Positions 22,301 to 25,300 of a stretch of DNA of 53,159 nt are shown one piece after another (the stretch's first letter is position 1; the number at the start of each line of letters is the position of its first letter). The DNA is from Streptomyces alkaliterrae (GTDB lineage Bacteria; Actinomycetota; Actinomycetes; Streptomycetales; Streptomycetaceae): positions 1 through 53,159 of the forward strand of contig NZ_VJYK02000004.1 of assembly GCF_007097205.2 (NCBI RefSeq), written 5' to 3'. The translations under genes and the position numbers were made by a program. The notes beneath the pieces are model-generated. The model worked only from the letters and a program-made list of their open reading frames with translations, searched no databases and was not told the origin of the DNA.

Positions 22301-25300
22301 GCCCGAGGAACCCGCGCGAGGAGACGCTGTGCCGTCTCTTCGCCGAGGTGCTGGACGTGCCCGGCGTCGGCATCGACGACAACTTCTTCGACCTCGGCGG
22401 CCACTCGCTCCTCGCGACCCGGCTGGCCGGCCGGATTCGCGCCGCGTTCGGCGTCGACGTCGGCATCAGCACGCTGTTCACCTCGCCGACGGTCGCCGCG
22501 CTCGCCGAGCAGCTCGGGCAGGGCGAGGAGCGGGACGCCTCGTTGGACGTCCTGCTGCCGCTGCGGCCGCACGGCACGCTGCCCGCGCTGTTCTGCGTGC
22601 ACCCGGCGGCCGGGCTGAGCTGGATCTACTCCGGCTTCCTGCGCCATCTGGAGCCCGAGCGCCCGGTGTTCGGCCTCCAGGCGCACGGCCTGCGGGACGC
22701 CTCCCAGGCGCCGGCGTCGATCGAGGAGATGGCCGCCGCCTACGTCGCCGAGATGCGCAAGGCGCAGCCGAGCGGGCCTTACCACCTGCTGGGCTGGTCC
22801 TCCGGCGGTGTCGTCGCGCACGCGATCGCCGTGCTGCTCCAGGAGGAGGGCGAGCAGGTCGGCCTGCTGGCCGTGCTCGACGCCTACCCCGGGCTGGAGC
22901 TGCCGCCGTTGGACGAGCAGGAGATCATGGCGACCCTGCTCGACTTCGCCGGCTACGACCGGCGCCGTCTGGGGCCCGAGCCGCTGGAGTTCGAGCGGGT
23001 CGTGGGGCTGCTGCGGCAGCTCGACAGCGCGCTGGCCGGTCTGGGCAGGCAGGACGTCGCCGCGATGGCCCGGGTGTACGGCGAGGCGAGCGAGCTGATG
23101 CGCCGGCACACCCCGCGCCGCTACACCGGTGACGTGCTGTTCTTCGTGGCCACGCTGGACAAGGTCGAGTTCTCGCCCACTCCGCAAACGTGGCTGCCGT
23201 ACGTGGACGGCGAGATCGACGTGCGCTTCGTCGAGCGTGCCCACACGGATCTGCTCAAGCCCGCGCCGCTGGCGGAGATCGCCCGGGTCGTCGCCGACCG
23301 GCTCGCCGCGCTCGGCGGGCCCGCCGAGCCGGTGTCGCCGCCGCCCCGCCCGGAGCGGGTGCCGCTGTCCGCCGGCCAGCGGCGGCTGTGGTTCCTCAAC
23401 CGGCTCGAGTCGGCGACGCCGTCGAGCGGCGCCTACAACGTGCCGTTGGCGCTGCGGCTGTCGGGCCCGCTGGACCGCGACGCGCTGCGGCTGGCCCTCG
23501 GCGACGTCGTCGCGCGGCACGAGAGCCTGCGGACGGCCTTCCCCGACGAGGACGGCGTGCCCTGGCAGCGGGTGCTGGAGCCGGCCCCGCCGCGCGCGTT
23601 GCCGGTGCGGCGGGTCGGCGCCGACGAGTTGGACGCCGTGCTCGCCCGTGCGGCGGCCACCCGCTTCGACCTGGCGGCCGAGCCGCCGTGGCGGGCCGAA
23701 CTGCTGGCCCTGCCCGCCGAGTCCGCGGACGCGGAGGGCGACGACGTGGCGGCGGAGCAGGTCCACGTGCTCTCCCTCGTGGTGCACCACATCGCCTGCG
23801 ACGGGGCCTCGCTGCGGCCGCTGGTCGACGATCTCGCCGTGGCGTACGCGGCGCGCCGGGCCGGCTCCGCGCCGCGCTTCGAGCCGCTGCCGGTCCGCTA
23901 CGTCGACCACCTCCTCGCCCAGCGCTCCGCGCTCGGGGAGGAGGACAACCCCGACAGCCGCGTCTCGCGGCAGCTCAACGCCTGGGCGGAGGCGTTGCAC
24001 GGCCTGCCGGACGAGTTGGAGCTGCCGACCGACCGCCCCCGCCCGTCGGTCGCCTCTCATCGGGGCGACACGGTCCCGGTGCGCATAGCCGCCGAACTGC
24101 ACGCGCGCATCGCCGAGTTGGCCCGCTCGCGGCAGGCGAGCACGTTCATGGCGGTACAGGCCGGTCTCGCCGCGCTGCTGACCAGACTCGGCGCGGGTAC
24201 GGACATCCCCCTCGGCAGCCCGGTCGCCGGCCGGGACAGCGAGGAGCTGGAGGGCCTGGTCGGCTTCTTCGCCAACACGCTCGTCCTGCGTACGGACACT
24301 TCGGGCGACCCGGGATTCGCCGAGCTCGTCGACCGGGTGCGGCGTACCGACCTTGCGGCGTTCGGCCGGCAGGACGTGCCCTTCGACCGGCTGGTCGAGG
24401 CGCTGCGCACACCGCGCTCGCTGGCGCGGCACCCGCTGTTCCAGGTCATGCTGGCCTTCCAGGAGGACGCCGACGACGCCCTGCGGATGCCCGGGCTGAC
24501 GGCGGAGCGCTACGAGGTACCGCGCCGCAGCGCCAAGTTCGACCTCACGCTCGACCTGACCGAGCGCCGGGGCGTCGACGGCGAGCTGAGCGGGCTGGAC
24601 GGCGTACTGGAGTACGCGACGGACCTCTTCGACCGGGGCACGGCCGAGCTGCTGGTCACTCGGCTGGTGCGGCTGCTCGACGCCGCCACGCGGGAGCCCG
24701 GGCTGCCGCTGAGCAGGCTGGTCGTCGACCACCCCGGCGACCGGCACCGGGTGCTCGTCGAGTGGAACCGCACGGCCAGGCCGGTCCCCGAGACCACCGT
24801 GCCCGCCCTGTTCGAGCTCCAGGCCTACCGCACCCCGCACGCGCCGGCGGTGGCGGCCCCGGGCGGGGAGCGGCTGGACTATGCGGAGCTGAACCTCCGC
24901 GCCAACCGGGTGGCCCACCATCTGATCAACCGGGGTGTCGGCCCGGAGGACTTCGTCGCCGTCTCCATGCCGCGCGCGGCGGACCTGGTGGTGGCGCTGC
25001 TCGGAGTGCTCAAGGCGGGCGCCGCGTATCTGCCCGTCTCCCCCGACTACCCGGCGGACCGGGTGGAGTTCATGCTGGCCGACGCCGCACCGGCCGTGCT
25101 GCTGCGCGACCTGAGCGAGCTGCCGAGCGGCCTGCCGGACCACAACCCGACCGATTCGGAGCGTGCGCGGCCGCTGCTGTCGGGGCACGCCGTGTACGCG
25201 ATCTACACCTCCGGTTCCACCGGCCGACCCAAGGGCGTGGTGGTCGACCACGGCGCCGTGGTGGATCTCGCGCTGTGGGCGGGCGACGCGCTCGGCTCCG

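What the first reader, a model, noticed from the sequence alone, without database searches (positions are those of the whole stretch)
22551..23325. Thioesterase domain embedded between the first and second NRPS modules
After the Thr module a full TE-like domain with GWSSGG and a downstream His is fused in frame, and the chain then continues with C-A-T-E. TEs normally end an assembly line. It could hydrolyse mis-acylated or stalled acyl-Thr chains, off-load an acyl-Thr product, or be retained as a structural part. I recall an internal TE in related acyl-Thr systems such as WS9326A, but cannot verify this.
Basis: partly seen in the sequence, partly recalled or inferred. Interest (0 to 1): 0.62.

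Follow-up and report, generated by a model that had tools for sequence, protein, structure and literature searches.

The report
Releasing enzyme inside a peptide factory
A bacterial peptide assembly line carries, right after its first station, an intact releasing domain that normally sits only at the end, and relatives suggest this domain comes from a small family tied to the first station of such lines, where it may pass the first building block on.

Summary
One 2,889-residue frame (19393-28062, +) reads C-A(Thr)-T-TE-C-A-T-E. The TE is Pfam PF00975 at residues 1065-1300 (22585-23292), with Ser1136, Asp1163 and His1284 in place and an EntF/Skyxy-TE-like predicted fold. It sits inside an otherwise ordinary T-to-C linker; the C domain behind it groups with LCL domains.

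It is not a recent copy of the terminal TE. In a tree it joins, at 100/99, a small clade of TEs from stand-alone C-A-T-TE starter genes in Streptomyces clusters with the same type II PKS set. In 7 of 7 relatives that could be read whole, the main line begins A-T-C without an N-terminal C domain, which suggests that this TE clade off-loads acyl-Thr/Ser and hands it on. A TE fused in front of a C domain was found only in this window (0 of 80 named-genome loci), within capped searches.

Because C2 makes a hand-over unnecessary here, I think TE1 most likely acts as a built-in off-loading or editing valve on T1; its clade-typical residues have drifted faster than those of C1 and A1. No function was tested.

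The parts
19393..28062 (+). NRPS1, C-A-T-TE-C-A-T-E, 2889 aa
19417..20715 (+). C1, starter-type condensation domain
   Evidence: Pfam; best PDB hits 7c1k and its kin, then CDA synthetase I (that these are starter C domains is recalled); own group at 100 in the C tree with first C domains of DhbF-like proteins and 7c1k
20776..22257 (+). A1, code DFWNVGMVHK (Thr)
22321..22512 (+). T1, carrier domain, LGGHS at residues 1001-1005
22585..23292 (+). TE1, internal thioesterase; Ser1136 (22798-22800), Asp1163 (22879-22881), His1284 (23242-23244)
23293..23367 (+). TE1-to-C2 linker; its last part ([10 protein letters not shown]) reads like an ordinary T-to-C linker
23368..24702 (+). C2, LCL-type condensation domain with HHIACD
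   Evidence: limits set by hand
24748..26217 (+). A2, code DVFSVAAVYK (substrate not assigned)
26263..26442 (+). T2
26503..27822 (+). E2, epimerization domain
28062..37838 (+). NRPS2, C-A(MT)-T-E-C-A-T-TE; its ATG overlaps the stop of NRPS1
37077..37760 (+). TE4, terminal thioesterase, GWSFG
41026..53152 (+). Type II PKS gene set (AT, several KS-like, hydrolase, 4HBT-like, FabA-like dehydratase, reductase, DsbA-like); read as supply of the cinnamoyl-type acyl group
   Evidence: Pfam; homologs of most of these genes beside relatives' NRPS

Best explanation
TE1 is a type I-fold thioesterase from a small clade that travels with the starter module (starter C, A for Thr or Ser, T) of cinnamoyl-type peptide lines. 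Shown: anatomy, triad in place, clade membership, fusion in front of an ordinary LCL-type C domain. Inferred: in relatives the TE takes the acyl-Thr/Ser off the starter T as an acyl-enzyme and passes it on, because the next protein has no C domain. In the window C2 can take the acyl-Thr straight from T1, so TE1 most likely works in cis as a slow off-loading or editing valve on T1, clearing chains that C2 does not take (wrong acyl group, stalled acyl-Thr): a former hand-over enzyme with a changed job.
For: Tree: TE1 with 11 other rows (12 rows, 10 distinct sequences) at 100/99; terminal TE4 lies elsewhere. The seven stand-alone relatives read whole are C-A-T-TE open frames of 1308-1463 aa. 8 of 8 TE1-clade genomes among 392 of the genus also hold the PKS gene KSb, which 76 of 392 have (P 1.5e-6). 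7 of 7 complete relatives start the main line A-T-C without C. C1 groups with starter C domains, C2 with LCL. Triad and fold. TE1 keeps 87 of 112 clade-invariant residues, C1+A1 289 of 313. The window has no PF00975 protein besides TE1 and TE4.
Against: No biochemistry. An active hydrolase on T1 would drain the line, so its activity on the right substrate must be low, or it does something else. The faster drift could mean decay. The window is the outgroup of the clade, so which came first, fused or separate, is not known. The genome has over ten further PF00975 matches on other contigs (18 in all), so an editing enzyme may exist anyway. The contig ends inside the cluster.
Confidence: 0.45

Rival explanations
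1. TE1 is the working hand-over enzyme also here: acyl-Thr sits on Ser1136 and is attacked by the amine of the T2-bound amino acid, with C2 helping or idle.
For: 7 of 7 complete relatives lack a C domain at the start of the main line. The TE clade and its triad are conserved.
Against: C2 groups with LCL domains and has its HHxxxD motif, which fits an L-Thr donor. T1 and TE1 have drifted more than C1 and A1.
Confidence: 0.15
2. TE1 is a passive relic or spacer left by the fusion of a C-A-T-TE gene to the next gene.
For: Only fused case found (0 of 80 loci; none; only two copies of the window itself). Reduced retention of clade-invariant residues (87 of 112).
Against: Triad in place, frame open, normal codon bias, overall identity to relatives 52-54%, close to 55-57% for C1.
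Confidence: 0.25
3. TE1 releases a second, short product: cinnamoyl-Thr as acid, ester or small lactone, made beside the four-module peptide.
For: The stand-alone relatives are single-module C-A-T-TE proteins, like EntF in layout; EntF-TE makes a Ser trilactone (recalled, established).
Against: In the tree EntF-TE is far off on a long branch and the DhbF-like TEs are outside the clade. No product is known.
Confidence: 0.15

Closest known systems
Skyxy-TE, terminal TE of skyllamycin synthetase (PDB 7crn, 7dxo)
   Same: Best sequence hit in the PDB (E 1.9e-69), 44% identity in the fold match; also from a cinnamoyl-peptide line.
   Different: Skyxy-TE epimerizes and cyclizes (title; PMC9321520 passages). 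The Gln after its catalytic Asp, given there as key for epimerization, is Ala1164 here.
EntF (C-A-T-TE, enterobactin)
   Same: Same four-domain order; its T-TE fragment is the top fold match (3tej); the TE hits the NCBIfam EntF model.
   Different: TE1 is followed by C-A-T-E. The TE alone scores 100 bits on a whole-protein model with cut-off 2400 (so no fair test of the model). EntF-TE is distant in the tree, on a long branch.
Stand-alone C-A-T-TE starter genes of Streptomyces cinnamoyl-type clusters (e.g. NZ_CP109497.1 308445-312365)
   Same: Same kind of TE, same starter C, Thr or Ser code, same PKS neighbours (the plasmid gene was not in the trees).
   Different: There the TE is the C-terminus of a separate protein and the main line starts A-T without C; here it is fused in front of C2.
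LgnA and the proposed WS5/WS20 TEII shuttles (PMC8748450)
   Same: A thioesterase moves a Thr unit between T domains of NRPS proteins (abstract, introduction, passages and discussion seen).
   Different: Those are free-standing TEII proteins that move unacylated Thr; TE1 is in cis behind a starter C. LgnA itself was not compared by sequence.
Internal TE of AlpA2 (alpiniamide) and of the burkholderic acid PKS
   Same: TE in the middle of a line, in AlpA2 just before an NRPS module; role unclear, cleavage of aberrant substrates suggested (PMC6113372 passages).
   Different: Trans-AT PKS; AlpA2 has Cys in place of the catalytic Ser.

Membership tests
Pfam PF00975 thioesterase | Score above the curated cut-off | tested here: met
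   102.3 bits against 26.4
Pfam PF00975 thioesterase | Ser-Asp-His triad | tested here: met
   S1136, D1163, H1284; columns invariant in 40 rows; geometry not measured
Type I terminal TE | C-terminal end of the last module | tested here: not met
   C-A-T-E follows in frame
Type II editing TE | Free-standing protein | tested here: not met
   Fused in cis after T1
Type II editing TE | Hydrolysis of wrong groups from T domains | not testable with these tools
   Needs an assay
Cinnamoyl-line starter-module TE clade (defined here) | Groups with TEs of stand-alone C-A-T-TE genes | tested here: met
   12 rows at 100/99, window as outgroup of the rest
Cinnamoyl-line starter-module TE clade (defined here) | Preceded by starter C, A(Thr/Ser), T | tested here: met
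Cinnamoyl-line starter-module TE clade (defined here) | Next module lacks a C domain | tested here: not met
   7 of 7 complete relatives lack it; the window has C2
EntF/DhbF trilactone synthetase | TE groups with EntF or DhbF-like TEs | tested here: not met
   DhbF-like rows (so called by domain layout) form other groups; EntF on a long branch, place unsure
Skyxy-type epimerizing TE | Gln/Glu after the catalytic Asp (PMC9321520 passages) | tested here: not met
   Ala1164
Cinnamoyl-containing nonribosomal peptide cluster | Type II PKS gene set next to the NRPS | tested here: met
Cinnamoyl-containing nonribosomal peptide cluster | Cinnamoyl group in the product | not testable with these tools
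   No product known

The most novel reading that the evidence does not exclude
This TE clade replaces a condensation domain: in the relatives it holds acyl-Thr/Ser on its Ser and lets the T-bound amino acid of the next protein attack it, forming the peptide bond between two assembly-line proteins; the window is a fused form that has both this TE and a C domain at the same junction, a natural intermediate between the two ways of passing the chain.
Probability: 0.25. Interest if true: 0.82.

Novelty: new variant of a known kind. Interest (0 to 1): 0.52.

Why it matters
Thioesterases are taught as the end of a line. A clade tied to the first module, beside lines whose second module lacks a C domain, points to another way of passing a chain from protein to protein. 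The fused form puts the two routes, TE and C, into one protein where they can be compared by point mutation. If TE1 is only a valve, it is a natural example of an editing domain built into a line, of use for NRPS engineering.

Tried and rejected
Rejected: TE1 as a recent copy of the terminal TE. The 67% DNA identity to 37053-37811 suggested it, but the tree puts them apart. Rejected: TE1 as an EntF/DhbF-type trilactone TE. Rejected: an epimerizing TE of Skyxy type (Ala1164). Rejected: two genes read as one; no stop, no convincing start, ordinary codon bias.

Led nowhere or only part of the way: DNA search in plasmids (no match). The junction query in 150 genomes scored at most 15 candidates a genome and its list was cut; one listed hit (G060) and several others reached back past the C domain, so I read six such places: none has a TE before the C domain, the G060 hit is a plain T-C linker of 26 residues. 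One search scored 3 candidates a genome and its list was cut; (100 relatives of G326, 13 candidates a genome) gave no new clade member. Hits just below the clade (E 1e-106 and weaker, G247, G142 and on) were not put in the tree. Fused relatives may therefore have been missed.

WS9326A: no named producer genome was among my loci, and Cal17/Sas17 could not be read. Paper searches: in the listings and in the passages I opened I saw the alpiniamide and TEII-shuttle papers and no description of a C-A-T-TE-C line or of the C-less A-T starts. Papers opened in passages only and of little use here: PMC13320435, PMC11735501, PMC9381841, PMC4598715, PMC6510318, PMC12662965, PMC9229766, PMC9136287. Subscription papers, among them Kim et al. 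2021 (Angew. Chem.) on WS9326A, were not seen. Unused: one paper search, four genome searches, one structure job.

Full report
What is there. The window is the whole of contig C334 of a 6.0 Mb draft genome. The left part holds ordinary cell-wall and signalling genes (FHA, PP2C, FtsW, PBP, PknB type). Then come NRPS1 (19393-28062), NRPS2 (28062-37838), two LuxR-like regulators (below the Pfam cut-off) and a type II PKS set up to the contig end. NRPS1 reads C-A-T-TE-C-A-T-E and NRPS2 C-A(MT)-T-E-C-A-T-TE: four modules with the codes DFWNVGMVHK, DVFSVAAVYK, DAYWWGGTFK and DAFFLGMVFK (nine positions read by alignment, Lys assumed). Only the Thr reading of the first is used; it rests on the recalled code.

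The internal TE is real and looks intact. PF00975 matches residues 1065-1300. Ser1136, Asp1163 and His1284 are invariant columns in 40 aligned T-TE proteins. A model built on that alignment has pLDDT 89.6 and pTM 0.87; its top PDB fold matches are the EntF T-TE fragment 3tej and Skyxy-TE 7crn. By sequence the best PDB hits are Skyxy-TE (E 1.9e-69) and then EntF (E 4e-29). The linker after TE1 ends like a normal T-to-C linker (PRPERVPLS; 24 T-C2 linkers of 7 genomes were printed beside it), so the TE lies within an otherwise standard T1-C2 junction.

What C1 and C2 are. In a quick tree of 69 rows of C and E domains, C1 falls in a group (100) with the first C domains of DhbF-like proteins and the PDB domain 7c1k, which I read as starter C domains; C2 falls in another group (100) with C domains that follow modules without E, read as LCL; C3 and C4, which follow E domains, fall in a third (99), read as DCL. 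The tool warns that the long E and C1 branches meet, so the order of the groups is unsure, not the groups. Chain flow from acyl-Thr-T1 to C2 is thus possible in the usual way. That the acyl group is a cinnamoyl group is inferred from the PKS genes.

Where TE1 comes from. In a tree of 97 TE rows TE1 groups with 11 others at 100/99; TE4 joins the terminal TEs of G326 and G037 only weakly (87/13) (the bootstrap had not settled). The others come from C-A-T-TE genes: G326, G037 (= L056), G156, G384, G165, G338 (= L055), G164, S. capoamus L101 and Streptomyces sp. H39-S7 L099; G338, G164 and L101 are cut by contig ends. A further one, not in the tree, lies on plasmid NZ_CP109497.1 of Streptomyces sp. 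NBC_01431. The sister group is uncertain (90/73: Skyxy-TE and other cinnamoyl-line terminal TEs). In the genus sample of 392 genomes the 8 with a TE1-clade hit (E 3.4e-118 or better, own genome included) all hold the PKS gene KSb, present in 76 of 392 (hypergeometric P 1.5e-6, 7.6e-6 without the own genome). In G338 and G164 the PKS is on another contig.

The main line of the relatives. In all seven that could be read whole (G326, G037, G156, G384, G165, H39-S7, NBC_01431) the first protein of the main line starts with an A domain (A-T-C-...) and the line ends in its own TE. In G326 and H39-S7 that first protein is broken by a frame break further on, sequence error or real. The A domain of the C-A-T-TE gene has a Ser code in G326, G037 and G156 and the Thr code in G384, G165, H39-S7 and NBC_01431; the A-T start has a Gly-like code in the first three and a Thr or Thr-like code (NBC_01431: DFWSVGMVHK) in G384, H39-S7 and NBC_01431, while that of G165 was not coded (residue names from recalled codes). 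Something other than a C domain in cis must join the two, or the C-A-T-TE product is used differently. TE hand-over, hydrolysis with re-activation, and a C domain acting in trans all fit.

How rare the fusion is. None of 80 named-genome loci has a TE followed by a C domain; two rows flagged internal, L070 and L116, are one TE in two consecutive pieces. None appears among the 16 groups, nor among the 20 starter-C loci, which read: C-T without A in 5, C-A-T-C in 3, C-A-T-E in 5, single-module C-A-T-TE in 5, fragments 2. Of 66 further loci, 41 hold a TE and only two have it in front of another domain; both are copies of the window itself (L136, L214). The junction query in 150 genomes listed no second fusion, but its list was cut; six listed hits that reached furthest back, or were otherwise in doubt, were read and have no TE there. 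In the plasmid search 0 of 47 records cover 80% of the query.

Signs of a changed role. Compared with five stand-alone relatives, the window keeps 134 of 144 invariant residues in C1 and 155 of 169 in A1, but 28 of 36 in T1 and 87 of 112 in TE1 (TE1 against C1+A1 Fisher P 1e-4, T1 P 0.01). Each relative, left out in turn, keeps 0.91-0.97 in TE. Changes include the residue before the catalytic Ser (Tyr to Trp, as in Skyxy-TE) and the one after the Asp (Thr to Ala). The window is the outgroup of the TE clade, so part of this is plain distance; the contrast with C1 and A1 is the informative part. Overall identity (TE 52-54%, C 55-57%) speaks against decay.

Verdict. Anatomy and family are firm. 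Function is inferred: most likely an off-loading or editing valve derived from a starter-module TE, with the relic and the hand-over enzyme as live rivals. The wider pattern, a starter-module TE beside lines without the second C domain, is to my mind the more interesting result and can be tested directly.

Noticed in passing
G326, G037, G156, G384, G165, H39-S7 (L225-L226), NBC_01431 (L207): Cinnamoyl-type lines whose main NRPS starts A-T-C with no N-terminal C domain, next to a separate C-A-T-TE gene: 7 of 7 complete cases.
   Followed up: partly
L154, L186, L187, L188, L190, L205 (G178, G167, G309, G018, G306, G360): Starter module without an A domain (C-T-C-...). A separate A domain lies nearby in G178, G309, G018 (cut by the locus edge) and G306, none in the parts of G167 and G360 read here; only that of G178 was coded: Thr.
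   Followed up: partly
window 37835-38518: Protein of unknown family (no Pfam or NCBIfam hit) right after NRPS2; homologs near the NRPS in G326, G037, G156, G178 and G309.
   Followed up: no
window 28062-33750: First module of NRPS2 has a methyltransferase inside its A domain and is followed by an E domain, so an N-methylated D-residue is expected.
   Followed up: no
window 53152-53159: The contig ends right after a DsbA-like gene of the PKS set, so the right end of the cluster is probably missing.
   Followed up: no
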